NCBI RefSeq assembly: GCF_018417535.1
Contig: NZ_CP070979.1
Location: 1,116,001-1,180,000 of the forward strand
Origin: Burkholderia pyrrocinia
GTDB lineage: Bacteria; Pseudomonadota; Gammaproteobacteria; Burkholderiales; Burkholderiaceae
Length of the DNA stretch: 64,000 nucleotides
Direction of reading: 5' to 3'
The notes under the pieces: model-generated
Seen by the model: the letters and a program-made list of their open reading frames with translations, nothing else
What the model was told of the DNA's origin: nothing
Databases searched by the model: none
Program-made: the position numbers and the translations under genes
Part shown: positions 29,848-60,558 of the stretch, piece by piece
Layout: the number at the start of each line of letters is the position of its first letter
Position numbering within the stretch: position 1 is the first letter of the stretch

Positions 29848-29899
29848 ACGCTGCGGGGATCGTTCGGCCTCCGGGATGATCCGGATCAAGCGTCCCGGT

Positions 29900-29995: not shown

Positions 29996-30003
29996 CGGCC
30001 GGC

Positions 30004-30105: not shown

Positions 30106-30387
30106 GTTCGCGATGCGCGCGGAAATAATCGGCGGAACCGGCCATTACGTAGAACGAATGCGGTTCCGAACGGGCGATGGAAATCAGGGATGACCGCATC
30201 TCTTGTCAGGTCGGGCGCGAACCACGACCAGACCGTTGCTTCTCCGGGTTGACGGCAATCAACTCCCGGGCCGGAATGCGGCACGATAGTGATCGTGTGC
30301 GCGAATGCGTTGCCATGACCCCGTTATCCGCGCATGCCGCGCACGCAGTGCGTCGCGACATCACGACGCTTTCGGGACGAACCCATC

Positions 30388-43953: not shown

Positions 43954-44910
43954 ATGCATCCGACCGAACCCGTACAACGCAGCAGCGCGCTGCCGCCGTC
44001 CGGCGAACCGCGCCCGCCGTGGGGCGGCACGCCGCCTGCCGCGCCCGCCCCCGAGCAGCCGCGCAAGCGCCGCACGGCACGCATGAAGCTGACGGCCGGC
44101 GGCCGTGTCGGCCTGTCGATGGTCGGCCTGATGCTGTTCGTCGCGGTGTTCGGGCCGCTGCTCGCGCCGCACGACGTCGGCGCGATCGTCACGCCGGACG
44201 TGTTCGCGTCGTTCAGCGCGAAGCTGCCGTTCGGCTCCGACTTCCTCGGCCGCGACATGCTGAGCCGGATCCTGTACGGCACGCGGCTGACCGTGCTGCT
44301 CGCGCTGGCCGCGGTGCTGCTCGCCGCGTTGACCGGCACGACGCTCGGGCTGCTCGCGACGGTGTCGGGCCGCGCGGTCGACGAGACGATGAGCCGGCTG
44401 CTCGACGCGCTCACGTCGATTCCGTCGAAGATGTTCGCGCTGATGTTCGTCGCCGCGTTCGGCTCGTCGCTGCCGCTGCTGATCCTGACTGCCGCGGTCA
44501 GCTACATGCCGGGCTCGTACCGGATCGCGCGCGCGCTGGCCGTGAACATCAGCACGCTTGAATTCGTACAGGTTGCGCGAGCACGCGGCGAGAGCGCGCT
44601 GTACATCGCGTGCGTCGAGATGCTGCCGAACATGATCCACCCGATGCTCGCCGATACCGGGCTGCGCTTCACGTTCGTCGTGCTGCTGCTGAGCGGCCTG
44701 AGCTTTCTCGGGCTCGGCGTGCAGCCGCCGTACGCGGACCTCGGCTCGCTCGTGCGCGAGAACATCGCGAGCCTCGGCGACGGCTCGGCCGTCGCGATCA
44801 TGCCCGCGGTCGCGATTGCGATCCTGACGGTGGGCGTCAACCTGTTGATCGACGGCCTGCCGCATCGCGGCCGCCGCAAGGGCGCGGCCGCTGCCGCGGG
44901 AGAGCACTGA
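43954..44910 (+). CDS. Dipeptide-type ABC transporter permease (DppC-like)
   Basis: 318 residues. The first 45 residues are a Pro-rich cytoplasmic extension. The DppC region reads GSDFLGRDMLSRILYG, and the coupling motif is ARGESALYIACVEMLPNM. Its stop overlaps the ATPase start (ATGA at 44907-44910), giving tight coupling. Confidence 0.93.
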   Translation: MHPTEPVQRSSALPPSGEPRPPWGGTPPAAPAPEQPRKRRTARMKLTAGGRVGLSMVGLMLFVAVFGPLLAPHDVGAIVTPDVFASFSAKLPFGSDFLGRDMLSRILYGTRLTVLLALAAVLLAALTGTTLGLLATVSGRAVDETMSRLLDALTSIPSKMFALMFVAAFGSSLPLLILTAAVSYMPGSYRIARALAVNISTLEFVQVARARGESALYIACVEMLPNMIHPMLADTGLRFTFVVLLLSGLSFLGLGVQPPYADLGSLVRENIASLGDGSAVAIMPAVAIAILTVGVNLLIDGLPHRGRRKGAAAAAGEH

Positions 44911-46781
44911 TGCGACATGAATCGACTCCGCTCGTCGAGGTCAGCGGGCTGCGTGTCGTCGGCGGCCGCCCGGGCGGTGCGGAGACGACGATCGTCCATG
45001 GCGTCGACTTCGAGATCCGGCGCGGCGAGGTGCTCGCGCTGATCGGCGAGTCCGGCTCCGGCAAGACGACGATCGCGCTGGCACTGATGGGCCATGCACG
45101 CGCCGGCTGCCGGATCGCGGGCGGCTCGGTGAAGCTCGCCGGCACCGACGTATGCGCGCTGTCCGCGCCGGCGCTGACCGCGCTGCGCGGCCGCAAGGTC
45201 GCCTACATCGCGCAGAGCGCGGCCGCCGCGTTCAACCCGTCGCGCACGATCCTCGACCAGGTGATCGAGAGTGCGCTGATACACCGGACGATGTCGAAGC
45301 GCGACGCGCAGGCGAAGGCGGTCGAGCTGTTCCGCGCGTTGGCGCTGCCGGAGCCGGAAACGATCGGCAAGCGCTATCCGCACCAGGTGTCGGGCGGCCA
45401 GTTGCAGCGCCTGATGGCGGCGATGGCGCTGATCACCGATCCGGAACTGGTGATTCTCGACGAGCCGACCACGGCGCTCGACGTGACCACGCAGATCGAC
45501 GTGCTGCAGGCGTTCAAGAGCGTGATCCGGCGTTATGGCATGAGCGCGGTATACGTGTCGCACGATCTCGCGGTCGTCGCGCAGATGGCCGACCGGATCG
45601 TCGTGCTGAGCGACGGCGTGATCCGCGAGGCGGGCGATACCGAACAGATCCTGCATGCGCCCACGCACCCGTACACGCAGAGCCTGATCGCGGCGGTCAC
45701 GCCGAACGGCGCCGAACGCGACGCGAAACCCGCGGCTGCCGCGCCTGCGCCGCTGCTCGACGTGCGCGGCGCGGTCGCCGGATACGGCGCCCGCACGGTG
45801 AAGGGCCTGCCCGCGAAAGTGATCCTGCACGAAGTGGACCTGCGCATCGGGCGCGGGCAGACGGTCGGCGTGATCGGCGAATCGGGCTCGGGCAAGACGA
45901 CGCTCGCGAAGGTGATCGCGGGCCTGGTGCCGGCCACCGGCGGACAGATCCTGCTCGACGGCGAGCCGCTCGCGCTCGATATCGGCAAGCGCACGAAGGA
46001 GCAGCACCGGCGCGTGCAGATCGTGTTCCAGAACGCCGATACTGCGCTCAATCCGGTGCATACCGTCGAGCGCACGCTCGCACGGCCGCTCGCGTTCTAT
46101 CACGGGGTCAAGGGCGCGCGTGCGCGGCAGCGCGTCGCGGAGCTGCTCGAGCTCGTGCGGCTGCCGCCGGCGGTCGCCGGGCGGCGCACCGGCGAGCTGT
46201 CCGGCGGGCAGAAGCAGCGCGTGAACCTCGCGCGCGCACTCGCGGCCGAGCCCGACCTGATCCTGTGCGACGAGGTGACGTCGGCGCTCGATACCGTGGT
46301 CGGCGCCGCGATCATGGACCTTTTGCGCGAACTGCAGGCGAAGCTCGGCGTGTCGTACGTGTTCATCACGCACGACATCGCGAAGGTGCGCGCGATAAGC
46401 GACGACATCGTCGTGCTGTACGCGGGCCGCCGCGTCGAGACGGGCAGTCGCGACGCGCTGTGCGCGCCGCCTTATCACCCGTACTCGCACCTGCTCGTGT
46501 CGTCGGCGCCGGAACTGCGCGCGGGCTGGCTCGACGATGCGGCCGAGCGTTGCCACCGGCCGCTGGTGCCGATCGGTGCGAGCGCGGACGATGCGCAGCT
46601 GTGCCCGTTCCTGTCGCGCTGCGCGATGCGGGTGGACGGCGTATGCAATCGGACGGCACCCGTGCTGCGCACCCTCGACAACGGCGCGCAGGTGCTGTGC
46701 CATCGCAGCGAGGACGACTTGACGCGCTTCCAGGCGGAGCCGGCGGCGGTCGTCGCGCCGGTGCAGCCGGTGCGCCAGTAG
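44910..46781 (+). CDS. Dipeptide-type ABC transporter, fused double ATPase
   Basis: 623 residues. Two ABC domains with Walker A GESGSGKT (about residues 47 and 325), signatures VSGGQLQR and LSGGQKQR, and Walker B LVILDEPTT and LILCDEVTS. Oligopeptide extensions (HPYTQSLI, HPYSHLLV) and a C-terminal Cys cluster (CPFLSRCAMRVDGVCN) are typical of DppD/DppF proteins, where the cysteines can hold a metal cluster. It is the last gene of the importer operon. Confidence 0.94.
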   Translation: MRHESTPLVEVSGLRVVGGRPGGAETTIVHGVDFEIRRGEVLALIGESGSGKTTIALALMGHARAGCRIAGGSVKLAGTDVCALSAPALTALRGRKVAYIAQSAAAAFNPSRTILDQVIESALIHRTMSKRDAQAKAVELFRALALPEPETIGKRYPHQVSGGQLQRLMAAMALITDPELVILDEPTTALDVTTQIDVLQAFKSVIRRYGMSAVYVSHDLAVVAQMADRIVVLSDGVIREAGDTEQILHAPTHPYTQSLIAAVTPNGAERDAKPAAAAPAPLLDVRGAVAGYGARTVKGLPAKVILHEVDLRIGRGQTVGVIGESGSGKTTLAKVIAGLVPATGGQILLDGEPLALDIGKRTKEQHRRVQIVFQNADTALNPVHTVERTLARPLAFYHGVKGARARQRVAELLELVRLPPAVAGRRTGELSGGQKQRVNLARALAAEPDLILCDEVTSALDTVVGAAIMDLLRELQAKLGVSYVFITHDIAKVRAISDDIVVLYAGRRVETGSRDALCAPPYHPYSHLLVSSAPELRAGWLDDAAERCHRPLVPIGASADDAQLCPFLSRCAMRVDGVCNRTAPVLRTLDNGAQVLCHRSEDDLTRFQAEPAAVVAPVQPVRQ

Positions 46782-46864
46782 TGGGCCGCACCATTCGTTC
46801 GCCGCGCTCGCGTGCGCCGGCGATCGGCTTTCCGGCTTTCCGCACACGCTGCTGCGGCAGTCGC

Positions 46865-46942
46865 GAAAAACGGTGGATTGCGCGTGCGCCGTGCGCGAAT
46901 ACGCGGCAACTGCGCTTTTTGATGGTGATTAAATGGTTTTCA
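46865..46942 (+). promoter_or_regulatory. Regulatory element copy 3, promoter of the decayed oxidase operon
   Basis: From AAAACGGTGGATT (46867) through GAATACGCGGCAACTGCGC to TTTTTGATGGTGATTAAATG. By my count 65 of 76 positions equal copy 4 at 55712 without gaps. It stands in front of a gene stub rather than a gene, so it marks a duplicated and then deleted operon. Confidence 0.65.
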
Positions 46943-46989
46943 ATGAGCGACCGCCGATCGTCGTCGCCGCAATGCTCGAGAAGGATCCG

Positions 46990-47246
46990 ATGAAACCCGA
47001 ATCGTACTGGCCGGATACTCGCCCCGCGTTTTGCGCCGGCCGTGAAGGGCCCTTCGAAGGGGGCGCCGGCGTGGTCGCGGTCTCCATGATGCGTTCGGGT
47101 TCTGCGGACATGGCTTCCGGCCCGGGCCCTGCGTCGGCGACACCATGGCGCGGTTGATCGACACCGGCGCGGCCGGCACGCCGATCAAGCCGTTCGCGAT
47201 CGCGCGCTGCGTCGCGCCGGCCACGGCCGCGCAGGCGGCCGCATGA
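46990..47246 (+). pseudogene. Operon scar: N-terminal stub of one FAD oxidase joined to C-terminal stub of another
   Basis: 46990 onward encodes MKPESYWPDTRPAFCAGREG and then GVVAV, a degraded version of the start of the FAD oxidase at 55886 (MKFESYWLDTRPDFRAGSAG). Near 47087 it changes, in another frame, to FGFCGHGF, then GDTMARLIDTGAAGTPIKPF to the stop at 47246, matching the end of the oxidase at 58943-60094. Everything between (the equivalent of about 3.9 kb in the intact copy) is gone. The stub is followed by an intact AraC gene exactly as in the full operon. Confidence 0.75.
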
Positions 47247-47257
47247 GGACGGAGAAC

Positions 47258-47713
47258 ATGATCGATCTGTTCCACGAGCCGGTCGACAGTGCGGTGCTCC
47301 GCGCTGCCGGCGTCGGGCGGGCCGTATCGCCGGCCATCGGCGACGTGCTGCGCACGATCGATGCGTCGTTCGCGCAGCCGCTGAATCTCGATACGCTCGC
47401 GGCGGTGGCCGGGTTCAGCGTGTCGCGTTTCACCGCGCGTTTTCGCAGCGAAATCGGGCTGTCGCCGCATCGGTATCTGTGTCTGGTGCGGGTTCGGCGT
47501 GCGCAGGACTTGCTGCGCGGCGGCGTGGCGCCGTCGGTCGTGGCGACCGAGGTCGGTTTCTTCGACCAGAGCCATCTGTGCCGGCATTTCCGGCGGGTGC
47601 TCGGGATGACGCCGCGCGATTACGTGAGCGCGCGCTCGGGTGGGACGCCGGGGCGAGCGCCGTCGATGCGTACGCGTGCCGAACGCCGCGACGCGTCCTG
47701 TCACGCCGTGTAG
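47258..47713 (+). CDS. Short AraC-family transcriptional regulator (DNA-binding domain only)
   Basis: 151 residues from the ATG at 47258 (GGAG 4 nt upstream; an in-frame ATG at 47243 lacks one). The protein is almost only the double helix-turn-helix of AraC/XylS: LNLDTLAAVAGFSVSRFTARF (first HTH) and SVVATEVGFFDQSHLCRHFR (second HTH), with the RYLCLVRVRRAQDLL linker. No N-terminal sensor domain. It is a close paralogue of the protein at 60106. It outlives the oxidase operon whose promoter it presumably once controlled. Confidence 0.88.
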   Translation: MIDLFHEPVDSAVLRAAGVGRAVSPAIGDVLRTIDASFAQPLNLDTLAAVAGFSVSRFTARFRSEIGLSPHRYLCLVRVRRAQDLLRGGVAPSVVATEVGFFDQSHLCRHFRRVLGMTPRDYVSARSGGTPGRAPSMRTRAERRDASCHAV

Positions 47714-47997: not shown

Positions 47998-48732
47998 ATG
48001 ACCGTAGCGTTGGTGTTGCACCGTGCCGACGGCACGCCCTTGTCGACCGTCTTCCGCAAGGAGTCATTCGGCGAGAACGACCCTTTCGGGCGACATCGGG
48101 AGATTGCATGGGAAGGCCCCGACTCGATGGCCGCGGGCCGTATCGGCTTCGTTGGCGAGCTCGACGTATCGAGCTTTCCGCACATTGAAACCATCGTCGT
48201 CGTGGAAGGAGAGCTTACCCTCGAAGTTCCCGGAGCCGCGCCGTTGGTGCTCGGTCCGCAAGCGGGGGCGGTCATCGGCGGCGGCACAACGGTCCGCGTC
48301 AACGCAGCATCGCCCGTGCTTTTCATGTTCTGCGCGGCGGCTTGCGGGAACCCGACGAAACGCGGCCTCTTTGCGCTGCGCGCGGATGCCGACTTCAAGA
48401 CGTCCGCATCGCTGCCGGCCGACGTGCTGCTCGGTCCCGCTCCGCAATGCCGCAGTGACAACGTCTTCACCGACGACGGCGCAGATTACTGCGCGGGTAC
48501 GTGGGATTCGACGCCGTACCATCGGATCGTTCGCCCGCATCGCGTGAACGAGTTCATGCAGCTGCTGGCCGGCAGCGTACGGTTCGCCGCGCCTGATGGC
48601 AGCGTGCTGTCGGCCGGCGCGGGCGACGCGCTGTTCGTCCCGCGGGGCGCGTCGATCGGGTGGGAAAGCAGCGAGCGCGTGGCGAAATTCTACGTCGTGC
48701 AAAACGTCCAGGCTTCGACCGGGCAACATTGA
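47998..48732 (+). CDS. Bicupin protein
   Basis: 244 residues with two cupin domains in tandem. Domain one: HIETIVVVEGELTLEVPG and GPQAGAVIGGGTTV. Domain two: HRVNEFMQLLAGSVRFAAPDG and GAGDALFVPRGASIGWES. Such DUF861-like bicupins often accompany opine and amino-acid oxidase genes, possibly as small-molecule sensors or enzymes. Start has AGGAGC 6 nt upstream. It is 2 bp ahead of the FAD oxidase at 48735, so the two are coupled. Confidence 0.82.
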   Translation: MTVALVLHRADGTPLSTVFRKESFGENDPFGRHREIAWEGPDSMAAGRIGFVGELDVSSFPHIETIVVVEGELTLEVPGAAPLVLGPQAGAVIGGGTTVRVNAASPVLFMFCAAACGNPTKRGLFALRADADFKTSASLPADVLLGPAPQCRSDNVFTDDGADYCAGTWDSTPYHRIVRPHRVNEFMQLLAGSVRFAAPDGSVLSAGAGDALFVPRGASIGWESSERVAKFYVVQNVQASTGQH

Positions 48733-48734
48733 TC

Positions 48735-50060
48735 ATGTCACCTCCGCTGCAACACATACAAACTTCGCCCACGCAGCCGGCTGCGGCTGACGTCGTCGTG
48801 ATCGGAGGCGGGATCATCGGCGTCTTTACCGCCTACTACCTGGCCCGGCGCGGGGTGTCGGTCGCGCTGGTCGAGAAGGGCAGGATCGGAGCCGAGCAGT
48901 CGAGCCGCAACTGGGGCTGGTGCCGGCAGCAAAACCGCGACGCGCGCGAGTTGCCGATGGCGAGCAAGAGCCTCGATCTCTGGGAACGATTTGCCGCCGA
49001 ATCCGGCGAAGACACCGGTTTTCATCGTTGCGGGCTGTTGTATCTGAGCAATGACGAAGCCGAGTTGTCGCGTTGGTCCAGTTGGGGCGAGTTCGCCAGG
49101 ACCGCCGGCGTGACGACGTACATGCTCGACAGCCGGCAGGCGAGCGAGCGCGGGCAGCCAACCGGGCGCCCCTGGAAGGGCGGCGTCTTTTCGCCGACCG
49201 ACGGCACCGCCGATCCGGCGAAGGCCGCGCCGGCCGTGGCCGCTGCACTGATGAAGCTCGGCGGCAGCGTCAACCAGCAGTGCGCGGCCCGCGGCATCGA
49301 ACTCGAGGGCGGCCGGGTTTCCGGCGTCGTCACGGAAGCCGGGGTGATCAAGACCAGGACGGCCGTGCTCGCCGGCGGCGCGTGGGCGTCGTCGTTCTGC
49401 CGCCAGCTCGGCATCCGTTTTCCTCAGGCGTCGATCCGCCAGTCGATCCTGAGCGTGTCGCCTGTCGAACAGCGCTTGCCGGATGCGCTGTACACCTCCG
49501 GCGTGTCCGTTACGCGCCGGAGCGACGGACGCTACGCACTGGCCATCAGCGGCCGCGCGCGCGTGGACGTGACGCCGCAGCTCCTGCGATTCGCCCCGTA
49601 TTTCGTGCCGATGTTCGCGAAGCGCTGGCGCAGCCTTCTTCCAGGAGGCCTCGAAGGCATGCGCGGCGGCCACGAAACGCTGAAGCGATGGCGACTCGAT
49701 GCGCCGACACCGATGGAGGCGGTGCGCATTCTCGATCCGAAGCCCGATATGCCGACGGTCACCGAGACGTACCGCCGTGCCGTCGAACTGCTGCCCGAAC
49801 TTCGCGAAGCGACGATCACGCACGCATGGGCCGGGTTCGTCGACAGCACGCCGGACGGCGTCCCGGGTATCGGCGAAGTACCGGGCGTGCCGGGCTTGAT
49901 CCTGGCGGCGGGCTTTTCCGGGCACGGCTTCGGCATCGGCCCGGGCGCGGGTCACTTGATCGCGGATCTCGCCACAGGTGCGCAACCGATCGTGGACCCG
50001 ATGCCGTATCGGCCCGGCCGATTCGGCGAATCCGCGTGGGGCAAGGTCGCTGATTTTTAG
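48735..50060 (+). CDS. FAD-dependent amino acid/amine oxidoreductase (DAO family)
   Basis: 441 residues. ADP-binding GGGIIGVFTAYYLARRG (about residue 24) with the following acidic strand ALVEKG, and the DAO C-terminal FSGHGFGIGPGAGHLIADL (about 393) contacting FAD. It oxidises a C-N bond of an amino acid or opine, passing electrons to O2 or the respiratory chain. Begins 2 bp after the bicupin stop; 90 bp before the next oxidase gene. Confidence 0.88.
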   Translation: MSPPLQHIQTSPTQPAAADVVVIGGGIIGVFTAYYLARRGVSVALVEKGRIGAEQSSRNWGWCRQQNRDARELPMASKSLDLWERFAAESGEDTGFHRCGLLYLSNDEAELSRWSSWGEFARTAGVTTYMLDSRQASERGQPTGRPWKGGVFSPTDGTADPAKAAPAVAAALMKLGGSVNQQCAARGIELEGGRVSGVVTEAGVIKTRTAVLAGGAWASSFCRQLGIRFPQASIRQSILSVSPVEQRLPDALYTSGVSVTRRSDGRYALAISGRARVDVTPQLLRFAPYFVPMFAKRWRSLLPGGLEGMRGGHETLKRWRLDAPTPMEAVRILDPKPDMPTVTETYRRAVELLPELREATITHAWAGFVDSTPDGVPGIGEVPGVPGLILAAGFSGHGFGIGPGAGHLIADLATGAQPIVDPMPYRPGRFGESAWGKVADF

Positions 50061-50150
50061 TTTGCGGCCGTCACGCGCAACGCGGTGGCGGCGTTTGAAC
50101 GATGCGCTTCGGTTCGGATCGTGCGCGACCCGCCGGCTTTGGAGTGTGTG

Positions 50151-51428
50151 ATGCGTTTCAGTTCCTACTGGCTCGATACGTCCGAGCCATTCGTGAGCAG
50201 CTCGCCGGAGCTGCCTGACGGAAGTTGCGACGTGGTCGTGGTGGGCGGCGGGATCACGGGCTCGGCGGCTGCGCTGGCGCTGTCGAAAAAGGGCGCGCGC
50301 GTCGTTGTCTGCGAAGCGGGCACCGTGGGGCAGGCGGCGTCGGGACGCAACGGCGGCATGTGCAACAACGGCTTCGCGCAGGATTACGCTTCACTGTCGC
50401 AGCGCATCGGCACGGAACTGGCCAACCGGCTGTATCTCGCGTTCGATGCCGGTGTCGACAAGGTCGAGCGGCTGGTCAGGGAGGAGTCGATCGACTGCGA
50501 TTTCGTGCGCCGCGGCAAGCTCAAGCTCGCGGCGAAGCCGGAGCACTACGACAAGCTGGTGCGAAGTCAGGCGCTGCTCGCCGCGAGCGTGGACCCCGAC
50601 ACGCGTGTGGTGACGAAGGCGCAACTGCGTGACGAGATCGGCTCGAACCGTTATCACGGCGGGCTGATCTTCGAGAAGAGTGCGGGGATGCACGTCGGCC
50701 GCTATGTACGCGGCCTGGCGAACGCCGCGCAAGCGCGCGGCGCACACATTCTCGAGCATGCGCCGGTTCTGAGATTGACGAGGGAAGCGGGCGGCGCATA
50801 CGCGGTGCATACGCCGCTCGGCGAGATCCGTGCGCGCCAGGTGCTGCTCGCGAGCGGCATCTCGCAGGTGGGGCCGTTCGGCTGGATCCGCCGCAGGATC
50901 GTGCCGGTCGGCGCGTTCATCATCGTCACCGAGCCGTTGCCGCGCAAACTGCTCGACCGATTGCTGCCGACCCGCCGGATGGTCACCGACACCAAGAACT
51001 TCGTCAATTTCTTTCGCGTCACGCCCGACAACCGGATGCTGTTCGGCGGGCGGGCGCGTTTCGCGGCGTCGAACCCCCGGTCGGACGAAAAGAGCGGGCT
51101 GATCCTGCGACAACAGATGGCCGCCGTGTTTCCCGAGCTGGCCGGCGTGCGCATCGACTATTGCTGGGGCGGCATGGTCGACATGACGGCCAACCGTCTG
51201 CCGCGCGCGGGCCAGCGACAAGGCGTGTATTACTCGATGGGCTATAGCGGCCACGGCACGCACATGGCCACGCTGATGGGCACGCTGATGGCGGAGATCA
51301 TGGACGGGCGAGCCGATCTCAACCCGTGGAGCAGTTTCGACTGGCCCGCTATTCCCGGCCACTTCGGCAAACCGTGGTTTTTGCCGTTCGTGGGCGCGTG
51401 GTACCGACTCAAGGACACCCTGCAATGA
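50151..51428 (+). CDS. FAD-dependent PuuB-like amine oxidoreductase
   Basis: 425 residues from the ATG at 50151 (GGAG 6 nt upstream). The N-terminus SSYWLDTSEPFV and FAD motif VVVGGGITGSAAALALSKKG are typical of gamma-glutamylputrescine oxidoreductase-like enzymes, with YSMGYSGHGTHMATLMG at the C-terminal FAD site. It is a full-length paralogue of the enzyme at 55886, with identical length. It would release an aldehyde for the aldehyde dehydrogenase that overlaps its stop codon (ATGA). Confidence 0.9.
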   Translation: MRFSSYWLDTSEPFVSSSPELPDGSCDVVVVGGGITGSAAALALSKKGARVVVCEAGTVGQAASGRNGGMCNNGFAQDYASLSQRIGTELANRLYLAFDAGVDKVERLVREESIDCDFVRRGKLKLAAKPEHYDKLVRSQALLAASVDPDTRVVTKAQLRDEIGSNRYHGGLIFEKSAGMHVGRYVRGLANAAQARGAHILEHAPVLRLTREAGGAYAVHTPLGEIRARQVLLASGISQVGPFGWIRRRIVPVGAFIIVTEPLPRKLLDRLLPTRRMVTDTKNFVNFFRVTPDNRMLFGGRARFAASNPRSDEKSGLILRQQMAAVFPELAGVRIDYCWGGMVDMTANRLPRAGQRQGVYYSMGYSGHGTHMATLMGTLMAEIMDGRADLNPWSSFDWPAIPGHFGKPWFLPFVGAWYRLKDTLQ

Positions 51429-52882
51429 ATTCACCTGTTCGTCACCTGATGCAAGCCGGAAGGCTGGATCGATTCTTTATCGACGGAGACTGGGTCATGC
51501 CCGAGGGCAGCGATCGGTTCGCGGTCGTCTGCCCGTCCACTGAAGAAAGGCTGTGCGAAATTCCGCTCGGGAACGCACGCGATGCCGACCGCGCGGTGCA
51601 GGCCGCGCGCGACGCTTTCGAACGCTGGGCCGCGACGTCGCCGCAGCAACGCGCCGCGCTGCTCGACCGCGTTCATGCGCTGATACTGGAGCGAGCCGAA
51701 CTGTTCGCCACGGCACTCGCGATGGAAATGGGCGCTCCCATCAGCTATGCGCGCGGTGCCCATGTGCCGCTCGCGGCCGAACATATCCGGGTCGCGCGCG
51801 ACAATCTGGCCAGCTACCCGTTCGTCACGCGGCGGGGGACGACCGCGGTCGTGCGCGAGCCGATCGGCGTGTGCGCGCTGATCACGCCGTGGAACTGGCC
51901 GATCTATCAAATCACCGCGAAGGTCGGCCCGGCGCTCGCGGCAGGCTGCACGGTGGTCCTGAAACCGAGCGAGCTGTCGCCGCTCAGCGCGTTGCTGTTT
52001 GCGGAAGTGATCGCCGATGCGGGCGTGCCCGCGGGCGTATTCAACCTGGTGAGCGGCAGCGGCACGGAAGTGGGCGCGGCGCTTGCCTCGCATCCGGAGG
52101 TCGACATGGTTTCGATCACGGGGTCGACGCGTGCGGGCGTACTGGTTGCGCAAGCGGCGGCGCCGACCGTCAAGCGCGTCGCGCAGGAGCTTGGCGGCAA
52201 GTCGCCGAACATCGTGTTGCCCGACGCGGACCTGTCGCGTGCCGTCGCGCCGGGCGTGGCCGCCGCGTTCCGGAACATGGGCCAGTCGTGCAGCGCGCCG
52301 ACCCGCATGATCGTCCCGCGCGGCGTTCTGGGCCGCGTCGAGGAACTGGCCGTCGCGGCAACGGAACGGATGATCGTCGGCGATCCGTTCGCCGAAGCGA
52401 CGACGCATGGCCCGCTGGCCAATCGCGCGCAGTTCGATCGCGTCGCGCAGATGATCGACGCGGGCATCGACGAACGGGCGAAGCTCATCGCCGGCGGGCC
52501 CGGACGGCCCGCGGGTTTCAACCGGGGCTTTTATGCGCGGCCGACCGTCTTTTCCGATGTCCGCACCGACATGACGATCGCGCAGCAGGAGATCTTTGGC
52601 CCGGTCCTTGCGATCCTTCCTTACGACACTGTCGAAGAAGCCATCGCGATCGCGAACGACACGGTTTACGGGCTCGGCGCACATGTGCAGGGCACCGACA
52701 AGGAACGCATGCGCGCGGTGGCTGCGCGCATCCGGTCGGGCCAGGTGCATCTGAACTACCCGGCATGGGACCCGCAGGCTCCGTTTGGCGGGTACAAGCA
52801 GTCGGGGAACGGTCGCGAGTACGGGATCGAAGGGATGGAAGAGTACATGGAGATCAAGTCGATCCTGGGTTTCCATGATTGA
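51425..52882 (+). CDS. Aldehyde dehydrogenase family protein
   Basis: 485 residues. NAD-binding ITPWNWPIYQ and ITGSTRAGVL, general base E255 (QELGGKSPN), nucleophile C289 (GQSCSAPTR). It likely oxidises the aldehyde made by the PuuB-like oxidase, whose stop it overlaps by 4 nt. This is the classic oxidase plus dehydrogenase pair of polyamine and opine breakdown, although no glutamylputrescine synthetase is in the window. Confidence 0.92.
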   Translation: MNSPVRHLMQAGRLDRFFIDGDWVMPEGSDRFAVVCPSTEERLCEIPLGNARDADRAVQAARDAFERWAATSPQQRAALLDRVHALILERAELFATALAMEMGAPISYARGAHVPLAAEHIRVARDNLASYPFVTRRGTTAVVREPIGVCALITPWNWPIYQITAKVGPALAAGCTVVLKPSELSPLSALLFAEVIADAGVPAGVFNLVSGSGTEVGAALASHPEVDMVSITGSTRAGVLVAQAAAPTVKRVAQELGGKSPNIVLPDADLSRAVAPGVAAAFRNMGQSCSAPTRMIVPRGVLGRVEELAVAATERMIVGDPFAEATTHGPLANRAQFDRVAQMIDAGIDERAKLIAGGPGRPAGFNRGFYARPTVFSDVRTDMTIAQQEIFGPVLAILPYDTVEEAIAIANDTVYGLGAHVQGTDKERMRAVAARIRSGQVHLNYPAWDPQAPFGGYKQSGNGREYGIEGMEEYMEIKSILGFHD

Positions 52883-52950
52883 AGCAACTGCCGCGCGCGA
52901 TGCGGCGGCAGTACAGATTTGAATCCGTTTGCTTTGCAAAGGTGCCGAGA

Positions 52951-54135
52951 TTGGAAAACCCCGTCATTCCCGACGCGTCGCTGAAAACGCATCACGCGCA
53001 CTGGGCGACCTTGCGCCGCGATCTGCATGCGCATCCCGAGTTGCGATTCGAAGAGCACCGGACGGCCGACGTCGTCGCCCGTGAGCTTGAAGATCTCGGC
53101 TATGCGGTGTCGCGTGGGCTCGGAGGCACGGGAGTCGTCGCGAGCCTGCCCGGTGCGAATCCGGGCCGCGGCATCGTGCTCCGTGCCGATCTGGATGCGT
53201 TGCCGATCCAGGAAGCCAATGACTTTGCGCACGCATCGGGCGCCCAAGGGGTCATGCACGCGTGCGGGCATGACGGGCATACCGTCATGTTGCTGGGGGC
53301 CGCGCGAATCCTGAAGGAACTGCCGCAGTTGCCGGGCACCGTTCATTTCGTGTTCCAGCCCGGAGAAGAGGGGGGCGCGGGCGCGCGGAAGATGATCGAC
53401 GACGGGCTGTTCGAGCACTATCCGACGGAGGCGGTATTCGGCATGCACAACTGGCCCGGTTTGCCTGCCGGGCATTTCGGGTTGCGTACCGGCCCGATCA
53501 TGGCCGCGGGCTCCCGATTCAGGATCACGGTAACGGGCCAGGGCGCGCATGCGGCGCAGCCGCACCTGGGCATCGACCCCGTCCCCCTCGCGTGTTCGAT
53601 GGTGCTGCAGTGTCAGACCATCGCTGCGCGGCACAAGGATCCGGTGGATCCTGCCGTCATTTCCGTCTGCATGTTCCATGCGGGAACGACGGACAATGTG
53701 ATTCCGGACAGCGCCGAGTTGCGCGGGACGATTCGCACGCTGTCGTCGGCATTGCAGCAGAAGCTGCAGCGCGACGTCCAGCTCATGTGCGAGGGGCTGG
53801 CCCGTGCCTATGGCGCGCAAGTCGACGTCGCGTTTTTTCAGTACTACCCCGCGACGGTCAACACGCCGGCCGAGACGGCACTCTGCGATGCGGTCATTCG
53901 CGAGACGTTCGGCGACGAACGCCTTGATCGCGACGTGCCGCCGAACATGACATCCGAAGACTTCGGCTTCATGCTGGAAGAGCGGCCCGGCGCTTATGTG
54001 CTGATCGGCAATGCGCCGGCCGGAACGGCCGCGCCGGCTCTGCATCATCCGAAATACGATTTCAACGACGACATCATTCCGGCCGGCGTCCGGTATTGGG
54101 TCGCGCTGGCGCAGCATTACTTCGCGACCGTTTGA
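52951..54135 (+). CDS. M20-family amidohydrolase (hippurate hydrolase/N-acyl amino acid hydrolase type)
   Basis: 394 residues from a TTG at 52951, which has AAAGG about 9 nt upstream; an ATG at 52900 has no such site, so the start is uncertain. M20D motifs: VLRADLDALPIQE, VMHACGHDGHTVMLLGAARI (metal Cys/His), FQPGEEGGAGARKMIDDG and the final NDDIIPAGVRYW. It removes an acyl group from an N-acyl amino acid using a dinuclear metal site. It follows the aldehyde dehydrogenase closely. Confidence 0.88.
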   Translation: MENPVIPDASLKTHHAHWATLRRDLHAHPELRFEEHRTADVVARELEDLGYAVSRGLGGTGVVASLPGANPGRGIVLRADLDALPIQEANDFAHASGAQGVMHACGHDGHTVMLLGAARILKELPQLPGTVHFVFQPGEEGGAGARKMIDDGLFEHYPTEAVFGMHNWPGLPAGHFGLRTGPIMAAGSRFRITVTGQGAHAAQPHLGIDPVPLACSMVLQCQTIAARHKDPVDPAVISVCMFHAGTTDNVIPDSAELRGTIRTLSSALQQKLQRDVQLMCEGLARAYGAQVDVAFFQYYPATVNTPAETALCDAVIRETFGDERLDRDVPPNMTSEDFGFMLEERPGAYVLIGNAPAGTAAPALHHPKYDFNDDIIPAGVRYWVALAQHYFATV

Positions 54136-55410: not shown

Positions 55411-55430
55411 GCCACGGCCGCGCACCGCGG

Positions 55431-55634
55431 ATGATGCGCGGCCTCGAGGCCGGCACGGTATGGATCGACCGCCATGGCAGCACATCGGATTTCGCGATCC
55501 CGACCGGCGGCTACAAGCAGTCGGGCATCGGCAAGGATCTCGGCCGCTACGCTGACGACGCGAACCTGCGCTTCAAGAGCGTCCTGACGACATGTCGGCG
55601 GGAGCGGGACGGATGGCGCCGACGCCTTTCATGA
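55431..55634 (+). pseudogene. Aldehyde dehydrogenase C-terminal remnant
   Basis: The frame reads GLEAGTVWIDRHGSTSDFAI, then PTGGYKQSGIGKDLGRYADD and RFKSVL before drifting into unrelated sequence. AGTVWV-N/D-RHG and GGYKQSGIGKDLGRY are the ending of PuuC-like aldehyde dehydrogenases. No dehydrogenase body precedes it, so this is the 3' tail of a deleted gene. The intact one at 51425 has a different ending, so it is not a simple copy of that gene. Confidence 0.65.
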
Positions 55635-55709
55635 CGGGATCGGGCGGCATTCGGCCGGTGCGCGCGGGCTCCCGCGCGCGGCTTGCGCATGATGTGCTGT
55701 CGCGGCTGC

Positions 55710-55787
55710 GCAAAACAGCGGATGATGCGCGCGCCGTGCGCCAATACGCGGCAACCGCGCTTTTTGACGATGATTAAATGGTATTCA
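55710..55787 (+). promoter_or_regulatory. Regulatory element copy 4, promoter of the FAD oxidase operon
   Basis: CAAAACAGCGGATGATG at 55711, CAATACGCGGCAACCGCGC at 55742 and TTTTTGACGATGATTAAATG at 55761. TTAAAT at 55774 is a candidate -10; with it the transcript would start near 55786 and have a leader of about 100 nt containing the perfect hairpin at 55832-55866. Confidence 0.6.
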
Positions 55788-55831
55788 CCGGGCGGCCGTC
55801 GCCCGATCGCGAACCTGCGGCGACAGGCGGG

Positions 55832-55866
55832 CGGGCGCTGCGCATGCGCGTCATGCGCAGCGCCCG
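55832..55866 (+). promoter_or_regulatory. Perfect 15-bp hairpin in the oxidase leader
   Basis: CGGGCGCTGCGCATG (55832-55846) and CATGCGCAGCGCCCG (55852-55866) pair perfectly around a 5-nt loop. It ends 8-10 nt before the ribosome site GAAGG (55876-55880) and 19 nt before the ATG. It could act as an attenuator, a translation-control stem or a dimeric protein operator; it has no T-run, so is not a standard terminator. Confidence 0.7.
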
Positions 55867-55885
55867 ATTGCTCACGAAGGACCCG

Positions 55886-57163
55886 ATGAAATTCGAATCG
55901 TACTGGCTGGATACCCGCCCCGACTTTCGCGCCGGCAGCGCAGGGCCTGTGGAAGGGCGTGCCGACGTGGTCGTGATCGGCGGTGGTTTTACCGGGTTGT
56001 CGGCGGCGCTGGCGCTCGCGCAGCGTGGCGTGTCGGTCGTGGTGCTCGAAGCCGCGCAGGTCTCGGCAGAGGCGTCCGGCCGCAACGGCGGGCAATGCAA
56101 CACCGGTGTCGCGCAGGACTATGCGTCGCTCGCCGCGCGAATCGGCGCCGTGCAGGCGCAGCAGTTCTACCGCGCCTACGAAAGCGCGGTGAAGAGCGTC
56201 GAGACGATCGTCGCCGAACATGCGATCGACTGCGATTTCCGGCGCAGCGGCAAGCTGAAGCTCGCCGCGAAGCCGCAGCATTTTGCGGGTCTCGCCAGGA
56301 CTTACGATGCGCTGCGGCGCGACGTCGATCCGGATATCGAGCTGATCGAGCCGTCGCGGATCCGCGACGAAGTCGGCTCCGACGGGTTCTACGGCGGCCT
56401 GCTGCAACGCAACGGCGCCCAGATGCACATGGGCAAGTTCGGGGTCGGGCTCGCGCAGGCCGCCGCGCGTGTCGGCGCGCGCATCTTCGAGCATGCGGCC
56501 GTCACGCAACTGAAGCGGCTCGACGGCGACCGGCACGAAGTGACGAGCGCGCGCGGCACGATCGTCGCCGATCGCGTGCTGGTCGCGACCGGCGCGTCGC
56601 AGCACGGGCCGTTCGGATGGTTCCGGCGGCGCATCGCGCCGGTCGGCAGCTTCATCGTCGTCACCGAACTGCTGCCCGACGCGCAGTTGAACCGGCTGTT
56701 CCCGCATCGCCGCGCGTACGTGACCTCGCGCCATATCGGCAACTACTTCCGCGTGACGCCCGACAACCGGCTGCTGTTCGGCGGCCGCGCGCGCTTCGCG
56801 ATGTCGAGCCCGCGCTCCGACGCGAAGAGCGGCGAGATCCTGCGCGCGGGCATGGCCGCGTATTTCCCCGAGCTCGCGAACGTGCGGCTCGACTATTGCT
56901 GGGGCGGGCTCGTCGACATCACGGCCGACCGCCTGCCGCGCGCCGGGCAGCACGAAGGGCTGTACTACTCGATGGGCTACAGCGGCCATGGCGTGCAGAT
57001 GTCGGTGCACATGGGCCGCGTGATGGCCGACGTGCTGTACGGCGCGGCAGCGTCCAATCCGTGGCGCGAGCTCGACTGGCCGGCGATGCCCGGCCATTTC
57101 GGGCACGCGTGGTTTTTGCCGTTCGTCGGCGCGTACTACCGGCTGCAGGACATCCTGCACTGA
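55886..57163 (+). CDS. FAD-dependent PuuB-like amine oxidoreductase
   Basis: 425 residues from the ATG at 55886; GAAGG is 5 nt upstream. N-terminal ESYWLDTRPDF, FAD motif VIGGGFTGLSAALALAQRG (about residue 31), conserved DYCWGGLVDITADRLPRAG, and the C-terminal SMGYSGHGVQMSVHMG site. It oxidises a C-N bond and likely gives an aldehyde. It opens an operon with a three-subunit dehydrogenase (57229-60094) and an AraC regulator. Paralogue of 50151-51428; a decayed start is at 46990. Confidence 0.92.
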   Translation: MKFESYWLDTRPDFRAGSAGPVEGRADVVVIGGGFTGLSAALALAQRGVSVVVLEAAQVSAEASGRNGGQCNTGVAQDYASLAARIGAVQAQQFYRAYESAVKSVETIVAEHAIDCDFRRSGKLKLAAKPQHFAGLARTYDALRRDVDPDIELIEPSRIRDEVGSDGFYGGLLQRNGAQMHMGKFGVGLAQAAARVGARIFEHAAVTQLKRLDGDRHEVTSARGTIVADRVLVATGASQHGPFGWFRRRIAPVGSFIVVTELLPDAQLNRLFPHRRAYVTSRHIGNYFRVTPDNRLLFGGRARFAMSSPRSDAKSGEILRAGMAAYFPELANVRLDYCWGGLVDITADRLPRAGQHEGLYYSMGYSGHGVQMSVHMGRVMADVLYGAAASNPWRELDWPAMPGHFGHAWFLPFVGAYYRLQDILH

Positions 57164-57228
57164 TTGACGTTGATGCGCGCTGCAGCCCGGTTCGTTCGGC
57201 ACGGCGTCGCGTGACAGGAGTGATGCAC

Positions 57229-57537
57229 ATGACAGGGCGATTCGTTCGTCTCGCCGAAACCGGGCGCGATCCCGTCGCATTTCGCGTCGACGGCCGCACG
57301 GTGAACGGGCTCGAGGGCGACACGCTGCTCGTCGCGATGCTGACGCAGACGGGACACGTGCGGCAATCCGAGTTCGGACCCGAGGCGCGGGCCGGCTTCT
57401 GCCTGATGGGCGCGTGCCAGGACTGCTGGGTCTGGACCGCCGACGGCGAGCGCCTGCGTGCGTGCACGACCGCCGTGCAGCCGGGCCTCGACATCGTCAC
57501 CCGGCAACCGGAGGCGCAATGGCCGAACCTCGCGTAA
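57229..57537 (+). CDS. (2Fe-2S) ferredoxin-like subunit of an opine oxidase/HcnA-type dehydrogenase
   Basis: 102 residues from the ATG at 57229, which has AGGAG 8 nt upstream. The 2Fe-2S ligands are C58, C63, C66 and C79 (GFCLMGACQDCWVWT and RACTT). It matches the small subunit of hydrogen cyanide synthase (HcnA), opine oxidases and D-hydroxyproline dehydrogenase (gamma). Its stop overlaps the next gene by 19 nt, as in those operons. Confidence 0.88.
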   Translation: MTGRFVRLAETGRDPVAFRVDGRTVNGLEGDTLLVAMLTQTGHVRQSEFGPEARAGFCLMGACQDCWVWTADGERLRACTTAVQPGLDIVTRQPEAQWPNLA

Positions 57538-58943
57538 TCGTCGTCGGTGCCGGCCCGGCCGGCGTGCGCTGTGCGCAGATGCTGGTGGCCGCCGGCGTGC
57601 GCCCGCTCGTGATCGACGAGGGCCGGCGCGACGGCGGCCAGATCTACCGGCGCCAGCCCGACACGTTCTCGCGCCCGTACGAGAAGCTGTACGGCACCGA
57701 GGCCGCGCGCGCGCAAGACCTGCACGACACGTTCGGGCGCCTGCGCGCGTCGCTCGATTACGAACCGGACACGCTCGCGTGGAGCGTGTCCGGCGGCGCG
57801 CTTTACACGGCGCGCGACGGCATGTCGGTGCGGCGGCCTTATGACGCGCTGGTGTTGTGCCCGGGCGCGACCGACCGGCTGATGCCCGTCAAGGGCTGGC
57901 AGTACGCGGGCACCTACAGTCTCGGCGCATCGCAGATCGCCCTGAAGGCGCAGGCGTGCGCGATCGGCGCGAACGTCGTGTTCATGGGCTCGGGCCCGTT
58001 GCTGTATCTCGTCGCGAACCAGTACGTGCAGGCCGGCGCGAAGGTCGCGGCCGTGCTCGATACGTCGGCCGCCGCGAACCGGCTGCGCGCGCTGCCGAAA
58101 CTGCTCGCGCGTCCCGACGTGCTCGCGAAGGGCATTGCGCTCACGCGCGCGCTCAGGCGCGCCGGCGTGCGCGTCGAGCAAGGGATCGAACCGGTCGAGA
58201 TTCACGGCGATCCGGCGCAGGGCGTTTCCGCGGTCAGCTTTCGTACCGCCGGCGGTGCGCTCGAGCGCATCGCGTGCGACGCGATTGCGTTGGGCTACCA
58301 CCTGCGTGCCGAGACGCAGCTCGCGGATCTGGCCGGCTGCGCGTTCCGTTTCGACGGCGACACGCGGCAATGGCTGCCGCAACTCGACGACATGGGGCGC
58401 AGCTCGGTCGCGGGCGTTTATCTGGCCGGCGACGGCGCGCGCGTGCTCGGCGCCGACGGCGCGGAAGCCGCAGGCCGCCTCGCGGCGCTTGCGGTGCTGC
58501 AGGATCTCGGGCGGCCGGTCGACGCGCGCGAGATCGCCGCGTTGCAGCGCACGCGCGCGAAGATGGACCGTTTCCGTGCGGGGCTCGCGCAGGCGTTTCC
58601 GTGGCCCGCGCAACACGCCGCGGCGCTGTCCGACGACACGATCGTCTGCCGTTGCGAGGGCGTGAGCGTCGGCGAACTGCGCCGCGTGATCCGTGACGAA
58701 GGCGCGTGCGAAGCGAATCGCGCGAAGGCCTTCAGCCGCGTCGGGATGGGGCGCTGCCAGGGCCGCTACTGCGGCCATGCGGGTGCGGAAGTGATTGCCG
58801 CCGCGGCCGGCGTGCCGCTCGAAGCGGTCGGGCGCCTGCGCGGGCAGGCGCCCGTGAAGCCGCTGTCGATCGCGCTGCGCGCGGCGGACGGGCCGCATGC
58901 GTCGCAAGCGGAAGCCGTGACGACGATGTCGGGGGACGAGTGA
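57519..58943 (+). CDS. NAD(P)/FAD oxidoreductase subunit, HcnB/OoxA-like
   Basis: 474 residues. N-terminal FAD site VVGAGPAGVRCAQMLVAAG, mid-region second dinucleotide site VFMGSGPLLYLVANQ, FAD-contact LAGDGARVLGADGAEAAGR, and a C-terminal BFD-like cluster site with four Cys (VCRCEG and GRCQGRYC). This is the alpha subunit of heterotrimeric opine oxidase, HCN synthase and D-hydroxyproline dehydrogenase enzymes. It overlaps both neighbours, implying a fixed complex with 57229 and 58943. Confidence 0.9.
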   Translation: MAEPRVIVVGAGPAGVRCAQMLVAAGVRPLVIDEGRRDGGQIYRRQPDTFSRPYEKLYGTEAARAQDLHDTFGRLRASLDYEPDTLAWSVSGGALYTARDGMSVRRPYDALVLCPGATDRLMPVKGWQYAGTYSLGASQIALKAQACAIGANVVFMGSGPLLYLVANQYVQAGAKVAAVLDTSAAANRLRALPKLLARPDVLAKGIALTRALRRAGVRVEQGIEPVEIHGDPAQGVSAVSFRTAGGALERIACDAIALGYHLRAETQLADLAGCAFRFDGDTRQWLPQLDDMGRSSVAGVYLAGDGARVLGADGAEAAGRLAALAVLQDLGRPVDAREIAALQRTRAKMDRFRAGLAQAFPWPAQHAAALSDDTIVCRCEGVSVGELRRVIRDEGACEANRAKAFSRVGMGRCQGRYCGHAGAEVIAAAAGVPLEAVGRLRGQAPVKPLSIALRAADGPHASQAEAVTTMSGDE

Positions 58944-60094
58944 TGCGGGCCGATGCGGATGTCGTGATCGTCGGCGGCGGGTTCATGGGCGCCGCCGCCG
59001 CGTTTTTCCTGCGCCGGCGCGGCCGCTCGGTGATCCTGCTCGAACGCGGGCTGATCGGGCAGCAGGCGAGCGGCGTCAATTTCGGCAACGTGCGGCGGCA
59101 GGGCCGCTATCTGCCGCAACTGCCGCTCGCGAACCGGTCGCGCGAGATCTGGGGCAGGCTGCCCGAGCTGATCGGGCACGACGCGGAATTCCTGCAGACC
59201 GGGCATATCCGCGTGTGCTACCGGCAGGAGCAGGACGACGCGTTCGAGGTCTATGCGCGCGAAGCCGCGCATTACGGGCTGAAGCTCGACCTGTACCGCG
59301 GCGCATCGATGCGCGCGACGTTTCCGTTTCTCGGCCCCGAGGTGCTGAGCGCGTCGCATTCGGAGATGGACGGTCATGCGAACCCGCGCCTGGCCGCCCC
59401 CGCGTTCGGTCGCGCGGCGGCGCGCGCGGGTGCGCGCATCGAGGAGAACACCGGGATCGCGACGCTCGAGAAGGATGGCGATACGTTCCGCGCGACGAGC
59501 ACCGACGGCCGCGTGTTCTGCGCGCCGAACCTGCTCGTGACCGCCGGTGCGTGGGGCAGCCAGCTCAGCGCGCAGTTCGGCGAGCCGGTGCCGATTGCCG
59601 TCAACGGTCCGCAGATGTGCGTGACCGAGCCGGTGCCGTATGCGATCCGGCCCGTCGTCGGCGTGTCGTCGCCGCATATCGAGGAAGTCGTGTACTTCCG
59701 GCAGGTCGAGCGCGGCAACATCGTGATCGGCGGCTGCGCGCGCGCGCCGGCCTATCTCGACGAACGGCGCGCGAAGGTGCTGCCGGAGAGCACGCTGCTG
59801 CAGTTCACGCAGCTCGCGCGCGTGATTCCCGCGCTGACGCGACTGAACATCATCCGCGTGTGGAGCGGCGTCGAGGGCTACATGCCGGACGACCGGCCGA
59901 TCATGGGGCGCAGCGCGAAGGTCGACGGGCTGTATTACGCGTTCGGCTTCTGCGGGCATGGCTTCCAGCTCGGCCCGGGCGTCGGCGACACGATGGCGGA
60001 GCTGATCGATACGGGCGCGACGAGCACGCCGATCGACCCGTTCGCGATCGCGCGCTTCGCGATGCCGGCCGACGCCGCGCACGCGACGACGTGA
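58943..60094 (+). CDS. FAD-dependent oxidoreductase subunit, HcnC/OoxB-like (DAO family)
   Basis: 383 residues. FAD motif IVGGGFMGAAAAFFLRRRG (about residue 9), C-terminal FAD site FGFCGHGFQLGPGVGDTMAEL (about 338). It is the substrate-oxidising beta subunit of the trimeric enzyme; the likely substrate is a secondary amine such as an opine, sarcosine-type or D-hydroxyproline compound. Start overlaps the previous stop by one base. Its last 50 codons recur, degraded, at 47087-47246. Confidence 0.9.
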   Translation: MRADADVVIVGGGFMGAAAAFFLRRRGRSVILLERGLIGQQASGVNFGNVRRQGRYLPQLPLANRSREIWGRLPELIGHDAEFLQTGHIRVCYRQEQDDAFEVYAREAAHYGLKLDLYRGASMRATFPFLGPEVLSASHSEMDGHANPRLAAPAFGRAAARAGARIEENTGIATLEKDGDTFRATSTDGRVFCAPNLLVTAGAWGSQLSAQFGEPVPIAVNGPQMCVTEPVPYAIRPVVGVSSPHIEEVVYFRQVERGNIVIGGCARAPAYLDERRAKVLPESTLLQFTQLARVIPALTRLNIIRVWSGVEGYMPDDRPIMGRSAKVDGLYYAFGFCGHGFQLGPGVGDTMAELIDTGATSTPIDPFAIARFAMPADAAHATT

Positions 60095-60105
60095 CGGAGC
60101 CGCTC

Positions 60106-60558
60106 ATGGCCGACGTTTTTCATCACGCGCTCGATCAGGATGCCGTCCGCCCGTTCGGCACCGCGCGGCCCGTGTCGCGCGCGATCGGGGGCGCCTTGCG
60201 CGTCATCGAGACATCGTTTGCGCAACCGTTGGGGCTCGCCGCGCTTGCCGCGGCCGCCGGGTTGAGCGTGTCGCGTTTTGCCGCGCGCTTTCGCAGCGAA
60301 GTCGGCGTGTCGCCGCATCGCTATCTGTGCCTCGTGCGGATCCGTTGCGCGCAGGAACTGCTGCGCGCGGGGCTGCCGCCGTCGGTCGTTGCGACCGAGG
60401 TCGGGTTCTTCGATCAGAGCCATCTGTGCCGCCATTTCCGCAGGGTGCTCGGGCGGACGCCGCGCGATTATGTCGATCATGCACCGGGCGCGGCATCGGG
60501 GCGGTGCGCCGCGCCGCCGCGCGAGCAGGACGCGGGCAGCCCGGCTGCTTCAGCCTGA
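60106..60558 (+). CDS. Short AraC-family transcriptional regulator (DNA-binding domain only)
   Basis: 150 residues from the ATG at 60106 (GGAG 6 nt upstream). Double HTH: LGLAALAAAAGLSVSRFAAR and SVVATEVGFFDQSHLCRHF, joined by HRYLCLVRIRCAQELL. A Gln/His-rich lead of about 30 residues replaces the usual sensor domain. Paralogue of 47258-47713. It lies 11 bp after the oxidase operon, so it may be its regulator and bind the element copies at 41128 and 55712; this is inference. Confidence 0.87.
   Translation: MADVFHHALDQDAVRPFGTARPVSRAIGGALRVIETSFAQPLGLAALAAAAGLSVSRFAARFRSEVGVSPHRYLCLVRIRCAQELLRAGLPPSVVATEVGFFDQSHLCRHFRRVLGRTPRDYVDHAPGAASGRCAAPPREQDAGSPAASA

What the first reader, a model, noticed from the sequence alone, without database searches (positions are those of the whole stretch)
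46865..47713. Operon scar: duplicated oxidase operon with its middle deleted and regulator kept
The order promoter element, N-terminal oxidase stub, C-terminal stub of the last operon gene, AraC gene mirrors the ends of the intact operon at 55710-60558. The equivalent of about 3.9 kb is missing and the two stubs are in different frames, so the deletion is not a functional fusion. The regulator gene is intact and would now be free to act on the other element copies.
Basis: seen in the sequence. Interest (0 to 1): 0.75.

Follow-up and report, generated by a model that had tools for sequence, protein, structure and literature searches.

The report
Collapsed second copy of oxidase operon
This stretch is the collapsed leftover of a second copy of an amino-acid-type oxidase operon in a Burkholderia genome: its enzyme genes are almost wholly deleted while its regulator gene is still open, an ordinary piece of gene decay with an unusual record of how the same place was trimmed in other species.

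Summary
Confirmed: 46850-47082 matches the promoter and first 31 codons of the oxidase ox1 (55695-55978), and about 47085-47600 matches the end of the last operon gene plus the AraC gene (59926-60445). About 3.9 kb has no counterpart and the stubs are in different frames. The genome is Burkholderia. Two points of the reading change. (1) Not a recent duplicate: the two AraC genes fall in separate groups (AraC1 here, AraC2 in the intact operon). (2) The scar is the extreme case of a genus-wide collapse. AraC1 lies between ABC-transporter genes and a cupin cluster at 41 places in 40 of 65 genomes; 38 keep full ox1, none keeps the operon's middle, and 3 (window, G032, G034), plus plasmid record LWK2, have lost ox1 too. 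In 39 of 40 ox1-AraC1 spacers, the old FeS start codon opens a frame that is either fused to AraC1 or stops at its start: 13 lengths, none out of frame. The ox1 stub drifts neutrally; AraC1's DNA-binding part looks constrained (p=0.018, rough). AraC1 and the cupin occur in the same 40 genomes. Most likely a pseudogene scar with a live regulator behind the old ox1 promoter; its targets are untested.

The parts
44910..46781 (+). ABC transporter ATPase gene, the fixed left neighbour of the AraC1 place
   Evidence: ABCatp found left of AraC1 in 41 of 41 genome places
46850..46956 (+). copy of the ox1 promoter region
   Evidence: 79% identical to 55695-55801; region conserved upstream of 48 ox1 genes
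46898..46922 (+). conserved promoter element, first of two in the genome
   Evidence: found upstream of ox1 genus-wide
46990..47082 (+). N-terminal stub of ox1, 31 codons, ends before the FAD-binding GxGxxG motif
   Evidence: motif at residue 32 of ox1; neutral drift
47073..47090 (+). deletion junction; GGTCG at 47073-47077 also present in both parent stretches
   Evidence: suggestive only
47079..47246 (+). C-terminal stub of the last (beta) gene, frame open to TGA at 47244-47246
47145..47246 (+). possible short leader ORF in the 'last' frame (ATG at 47145)
   Evidence: expression not tested
47243..47713 (+). AraC1, short AraC-type regulator (likely start 47258)
   Evidence: Pfam HTH_18 E 8.2e-20; start
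47998..54135 (+). cupin, dao48, dao50, aldehyde dehydrogenase, M20 cluster that follows AraC1
   Evidence: cupin in the same 40 genomes as AraC1
55416..55586 (+). C-terminal remnant of the aldehyde dehydrogenase ALDH2 that precedes the operon in other strains
   Evidence: 88% over ALDH2 residues 415-471
55743..55767 (+). second copy of the promoter element, before intact ox1
55886..57163 (+). ox1, intact FAD-dependent oxidase
   Evidence: Pfam DAO E 4.5e-72
57223..57537 (+). FeS (gamma-type) gene
   Evidence: C-x4-C-x2-C-x12-C motif
57519..58943 (+). mid (alpha-type) gene
   Evidence: Pyr_redox_2 and Fer2_BFD domains
58943..60094 (+). last (beta-type) DAO gene
   Evidence: Pfam DAO E 2.4e-66
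60106..60558 (+). AraC2, regulator of the intact copy

Best explanation
46850-47713 is the collapsed remainder of an ABC-transporter-linked copy of the operon ox1-FeS-alpha-beta-AraC. In this group (window, G032, G034, LWK2) almost all of ox1 went as well as FeS-alpha-beta, while another full operon with its own regulator AraC2 lies about 8 kb downstream. The enzyme stubs are dead. AraC1 is still an open regulator gene that now lies directly behind the old ox1 promoter. Shown: homology, gene order in relatives, neutral drift of the ox1 stub, open AraC1 frame. Supported by a rough test: constraint on the AraC1 DNA-binding part. Inferred: transcription from the old promoter; a role of AraC1 for the cupin cluster beside it, and possibly at the one other element copy, since its HTH region is 75 of 100 residues identical to that of AraC2.
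For: Alignments. Gene order: 41 of 41 AraC1 genome places lie between ABC and cupin, 38 with full ox1, 0 with alpha or full beta gene, G033 with part of FeS; full ABC-linked operons in G061, BX1, G021, G035 and Paraburkholderia L088, L091 point to the full form as the older one. Leftovers of FeS in 39 of 40 ox1-AraC1 spacers. Trees: scar AraC1 genes group 99/97, with G033 96/88, inside the 44 AraC1 rows (94/85); AraC2 rows lie outside. Stub drift 2-4 synonymous to 11-12 nonsynonymous, as neutral, in 3 of 3 comparisons; AraC1 DNA-binding part 8 to 5, p=0.018. AraC1 and cupin in the same 40 of 65 genomes (lists compared by me).
Against: No place was found with AraC1 directly after a complete operon, so the full ancestor is inferred. 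AraC1 termini drift freely (5 to 22) and the whole-gene dN/dS of window against LWK2, G032, G034 is 0.78-0.94, so AraC1 may be starting to decay; termini drift in the ox1-keeping groups too. The element has 2-3 mismatches in the other three scars. No motif is shared between ox1 and cupin upstream regions: the best score was exceeded by 7 of 20 shuffles. The AraC tree's bootstrap had not settled.
Confidence: 0.82

Rival explanations
1. One reading: a recent duplication of the intact operon within this genome, then one 3.9-kb deletion in the duplicate.
For: Both copies sit in one replicon 8 kb apart, and the ends match in order.
Against: AraC1 and AraC2 differ at 33% of residues (67% identity) and fall in separate groups shared by other species; the ox1 genes of 40 AraC1 places form a group (99/89) without the operon's ox1. 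An ALDH2 remnant precedes the intact operon, as in ABC-linked operons elsewhere.
Confidence: 0.06
2. Transfer version of the best explanation: the AraC1-to-M20 block, with or without its scar, entered a BX1-like locus between the ABC gene and ALDH2, cut ALDH2, and made ox1 redundant. The other version is loss: both copies were once side by side and different species lost different ones.
For: B. pyrrocinia BX1 has intact ALDH2 and no AraC1 block where LWK2 has the block and an ALDH2 remnant, with the same outer flank in BX1, G032 and G034. Synonymous divergence of window from LWK2, G032, G034 is 0.07-0.15 in AraC1, cupin, dao48, aldh, M20, against 0.15-0.22 in ABC genes and 0.18-0.30 in ox1-FeS-alpha-beta.
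Against: dao50 (0.22-0.23) and GNAT (0.19, one comparison) break the pattern. ABC divergence is about as low against several other species, so ABC is a poor yardstick. No genome-wide species tree was obtained (one search failed).
Confidence: 0.55
3. The remnant is still useful as a translated leader: ribosomes pass from the ox1 stub (ORF 46933-47157) to the short ORF at 47145-47246 and on to AraC1.
For: The stub ORF overlaps the ATG at 47145 and the short ORF ends at the AraC1 ORF start. In ox1-keeping species 39 of 40 spacers keep a leader frame into or up to AraC1, 13 lengths, none out of frame.
Against: The stub codons drift neutrally. The other three scars have lost the ox1 start and have mostly TTG/GTG starts in the leader frame, one ATG in G034. 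AraC1 has a start of its own at 47258 with GGAG before it (sequence).
Confidence: 0.15

Closest known systems
Flavin-containing opine dehydrogenase operons, OdhC-A-B order of B. thailandensis (PMC4575208; abstract and 12 found passages seen)
   Same: The intact operon has the same gamma-alpha-beta order; gamma cysteine motif and beta Arg-x-Trp motif are present; beta and alpha match the two chains of PDB 1y56.
   Different: Extra ox1 and AraC genes; the alpha cysteine spacing given in the paper was not found; substrate unknown. In the scar none of the enzyme genes is left whole.
Operon remnants and pseudogenes left by internal deletion (general knowledge, no paper read)
   Same: Stubs of the two ends of a gene set, out of frame, with neutral drift of the ox1 stub.
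   Different: The same place is trimmed to different extents in many species, with the regulator kept in each of the 41 places seen.
Short AraC-type regulators (Pfam HTH_18)
   Same: One AraC-type DNA-binding domain.
   Different: No further Pfam domain found in its 156 residues; in 20 of 39 species-level spacers its start is the start codon of a deleted FeS gene.

Membership tests
Operon remnant (pseudogene scar) | sequence homology of both ends to an intact operon, in order | tested here: met
Operon remnant (pseudogene scar) | relatives keep more of the operon at the same place | tested here: met
   38 of 41 AraC1 places keep full ox1, G033 also part of FeS; complete operon with AraC1 not seen
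Operon remnant (pseudogene scar) | neutral drift of the remnant | tested here: met
   ox1 stub, 3 of 3 comparisons as neutral; only 31 codons. The 'last' stub was not tested
Flavin-containing opine dehydrogenase, OdhC-A-B (intact operon only) | gamma-alpha-beta order | tested here: met
   order in PMC4575208 from a passage
Flavin-containing opine dehydrogenase, OdhC-A-B (intact operon only) | gamma C-x4-C-x2-C-x11-12-C and beta R-x-W motifs | tested here: met
Flavin-containing opine dehydrogenase, OdhC-A-B (intact operon only) | alpha C-x-C-x15-20-C-x4-C motif | tested here: not met
   found only with a wider gap (33 residues); so I say opine-dehydrogenase-like, not a member
Flavin-containing opine dehydrogenase, OdhC-A-B (intact operon only) | activity on opines | not testable with these tools
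   none
AraC-family regulator (AraC1) | AraC-type DNA-binding domain, open frame | tested here: met
   HTH_18 above its cut-off; no internal stop in 44 of 44 AraC1 places
AraC-family regulator (AraC1) | binds and controls a promoter | not testable with these tools
   element found, binding not tested

The most novel reading that the evidence does not exclude
Across Burkholderia the operon beside the ABC genes has collapsed repeatedly and independently, at least three times on the AraC1 tree (common form, G033, scar group), always sparing the regulator. The left-over ends of the deleted FeS and beta genes were recycled as a translated leader, or as a new N-terminus, that feeds AraC1; the window shows the end point, where ox1 and the leader start are gone too and the regulator has taken over the ox1 promoter while a second full operon supplies the enzymes.
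Probability: 0.35. Interest if true: 0.55.

Novelty: new member of a known kind. Interest (0 to 1): 0.33.

Why it matters
The scar itself is ordinary decay. The comparison around it gives a natural series, from full operon through ox1 plus remnant to regulator alone, in which a regulator outlives the genes it sat with and changes how it is started. It also shows annotators that the annotated AraC start in a B. cepacia plasmid record is the old start codon of a deleted iron-sulfur gene.

Tried and rejected
A shared motif between the ox1 and cupin upstream regions was sought and not found; the best score was exceeded by 7 of 20 column shuffles. Recent duplication was tested with trees and is disfavoured. 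One shared deletion for the whole genus was considered: G033 keeps FeS residues 3-85 but only the last few residues of 'last', while the window keeps about 53 residues of 'last' and no FeS, so neither can come from the other without recombination. One 3.9-kb deletion versus two steps (middle first, ox1 later) could not be decided: one common-form leader (G046, L073) may hold a rather long 'last' tail as well (local match 59948-60027). By DNA similarity to the window operon alone, 25 of 40 spacers beat all 30 of their own shuffles and 15 do not (my count); for those 15 the FeS origin rests on likeness to the other spacers, by eye. L059 has a 5-nt spacer without leader. A species tree by gyrB was not obtained. 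Literature: five searches gave 0, 1, 1, 8 and 1 papers; no listed title was about this locus; only PMC4575208 was opened (abstract and passages).

Rows dropped: one search dropped hits under 35% identity or 38 bits; one search dropped ox1 hits under 65% identity or about 300 residues and AraC hits under 50% or about 80 residues; one search skipped 7 loci where ox1 does not stand next to AraC1 (L009, L062-L065, L067, L068). One search found 141 relatives of the alpha gene and kept 80; all 80 were run. The 48 rows checked for stops are 44 AraC1 places and 4 loci with another AraC (L062-L065); its printed 49 counts one helper row.

Full report
Setting. The window is G000:C3:1116001-1180000 of an 8.5-Mb genome in three contigs. 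GC is 68%.

Observation. The repeats are real: left 46850-46956 and 46965-47082 against 55695-55801 and 55861-55978 at 79% and 80%; right 47078-47286 and 47298-47597 against 59926-60134 and 60146-60445 at 74% and 79% (gapped alignment). In the whole genome these are by far the best partners. The ox1 stub (31 codons from 46990) and the stub of the last gene lie in different frames. About 3.95 kb has no counterpart. GGTCG stands at the junction and in both parent stretches; in such GC-rich DNA that is only suggestive.

What the operon is. The intact operon encodes ox1 (DAO, E 4.5e-72), a small 2Fe-2S protein, an alpha-type protein (Pyr_redox_2, BFD), a beta-type DAO protein and a short AraC protein (LWK2 is annotated likewise). 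Alpha and beta match the two chains of PDB 1y56, E 3.1e-6 and 3.7e-39; the FeS protein matches no PDB sequence. The order gamma-alpha-beta equals the OdhC-A-B order that PMC4575208 gives for B. thailandensis (passage). Gamma and beta motifs named there are present, the alpha spacing is not. I call it opine-dehydrogenase-like; the substrate is unknown.

The equivalent place elsewhere. AraC1 relatives with at least 220 bits lie at 41 places in 40 of 65 genomes of the genus (counted from its list). I looked at all 41 (the window for G000) and at three plasmid records. In 41 of 41 AraC1 lies between the ABC ATPase gene and the cupin gene; 38 have a full ox1 between ABC and AraC1, 3 (window, G032, G034) do not. 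Plasmid records L010 and L011 keep ox1, LWK2 (L009) does not. None of these 44 places showed an alpha gene or full beta gene between ABC and AraC1; G033 keeps FeS residues 3-85. In many of the more distant loci FeS, alpha and beta directly follow the ABC ATPase. So a full ABC-linked operon is most likely the older state and the AraC1 places are reduced forms.

Remnants in the common form. Of 40 spacers between ox1 and AraC1, 39 hold a frame from the old FeS start codon; the exception is L059. Twenty are in frame with AraC1 (lengths 30, 39, 48, 51), 19 end on the stop overlapping the ATGA at the AraC1 ORF start (44, 47, 68, 74, 110, 113, 140, 143, 278); none holds a stop. So 13 different lengths keep one of two frames that lead to AraC1. 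The species are related, and some spacers are identical, so these are not independent trials; still it fits selection for translation up to AraC1. Before the old FeS start, 33 of 39 have GGAG (my count). In the B. cepacia record the annotated AraC gene starts on that codon. In 9 of 11 full operons an in-frame AraC start stands 13-14 nt after the beta stop; the window's ATG at 47258 stands 14 nt after the tail's stop.

The scar group. LWK2, G032 and G034 lack even the ox1 start; the promoter region runs straight into about residue 350 of 'last'. The window keeps more on both sides, so its form could be the earlier one, but separate deletions are possible. All four carry a full operon with AraC2 some 8 kb downstream, preceded by a C-terminal remnant of ALDH2. 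BX1, whose outer flank matches that of G032 and G034 at 92%, has intact ALDH2 there and no AraC1 block. Synonymous divergence of the window from LWK2, G032 and G034 is 0.07-0.15 in AraC1, cupin, dao48, aldh and M20, 0.15-0.22 in the ABC genes, 0.18-0.30 in ox1-FeS-alpha-beta and 0.36-0.40 in AraC2; dao50 (0.22-0.23) and GNAT (0.19, one comparison) do not follow. ABC genes are about as close to several other species. This leans to a block that moved between lineages, without proving it.

Trees. The four scar AraC1 genes group (99/97), with G033 as sister (96/88), inside 44 AraC1 rows (94/85); the six AraC2 rows lie outside. The ox1 genes of 40 AraC1 places form a group (99/89) without the operon copies. 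The AraC bootstrap had not settled. ABC proteins join G032, G034, G061, LWK2 and BX1 (100/99) and leave the window unresolved (bootstrap not settled).

Is anything still working? The ox1 stub differs from intact ox1 starts by 2-4 synonymous and 11-12 nonsynonymous changes, as expected of neutral drift, in 3 of 3 comparisons. The AraC1 DNA-binding part in the scar group shows 8 synonymous to 5 nonsynonymous (p=0.018), its termini 5 to 22 (p=0.89). In four ox1-keeping groups (one locus used twice) the binding part gives p of 2.1e-4 or less, and the termini are free there too. Over the whole gene dN/dS of the window against the other three scars is 0.78-0.94. So constraint is there but weaker or less well measured. 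AraC1 has no internal stop in 44 of 44 places. The element is perfect in the window, with 2-3 mismatches in the other scars, and occurs twice in the genome.

What AraC1 may do. A cupin relative (E at most 1e-60) is in 40 of 65 genomes, the same 40 as AraC1 when I compared the lists; all scar places keep the cluster. That makes the cluster the steadier partner, though no shared upstream motif supports control. The HTH regions of AraC1 and AraC2 agree in 75 of 100 residues, with one 25-residue run identical, so action at the operon's element is possible. Both are inferences.

Verdict. A real operon scar with an open regulator: ordinary decay, but part of a genus-wide, repeated trimming of one operon place that keeps the regulator and, in most species seen, a translated path to it.

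Noticed in passing
L197 (BX1) 18889-27331 versus L009 (LWK2) 16151-30505: Two strains named B. pyrrocinia differ by the whole AraC1-cupin-dao48-dao50-aldh-M20 block, present in LWK2 and absent in BX1.
   Followed up: partly
L011 11971-12402: The annotated AraC gene of this B. cepacia plasmid starts on the old start codon of the deleted FeS gene, so its first ten residues are of FeS origin.
   Followed up: yes
window 50151-51428: dao50 is a second ox1-like oxidase (56% identical to ox1), absent from the cluster in many species; its synonymous divergence (0.22) does not match its neighbours.
   Followed up: no
L063 1348, L064 18386, L088 7433: In G021, G035 and Paraburkholderia fynbosensis a weaker version of the element (4-6 mismatches) lies about 900 bp, not 90 bp, upstream of ox1.
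   Followed up: no
window 55416-55586: C-terminal remnant of ALDH2, another decayed gene just before the intact operon; remnants differ in length among the four genomes.
   Followed up: partly
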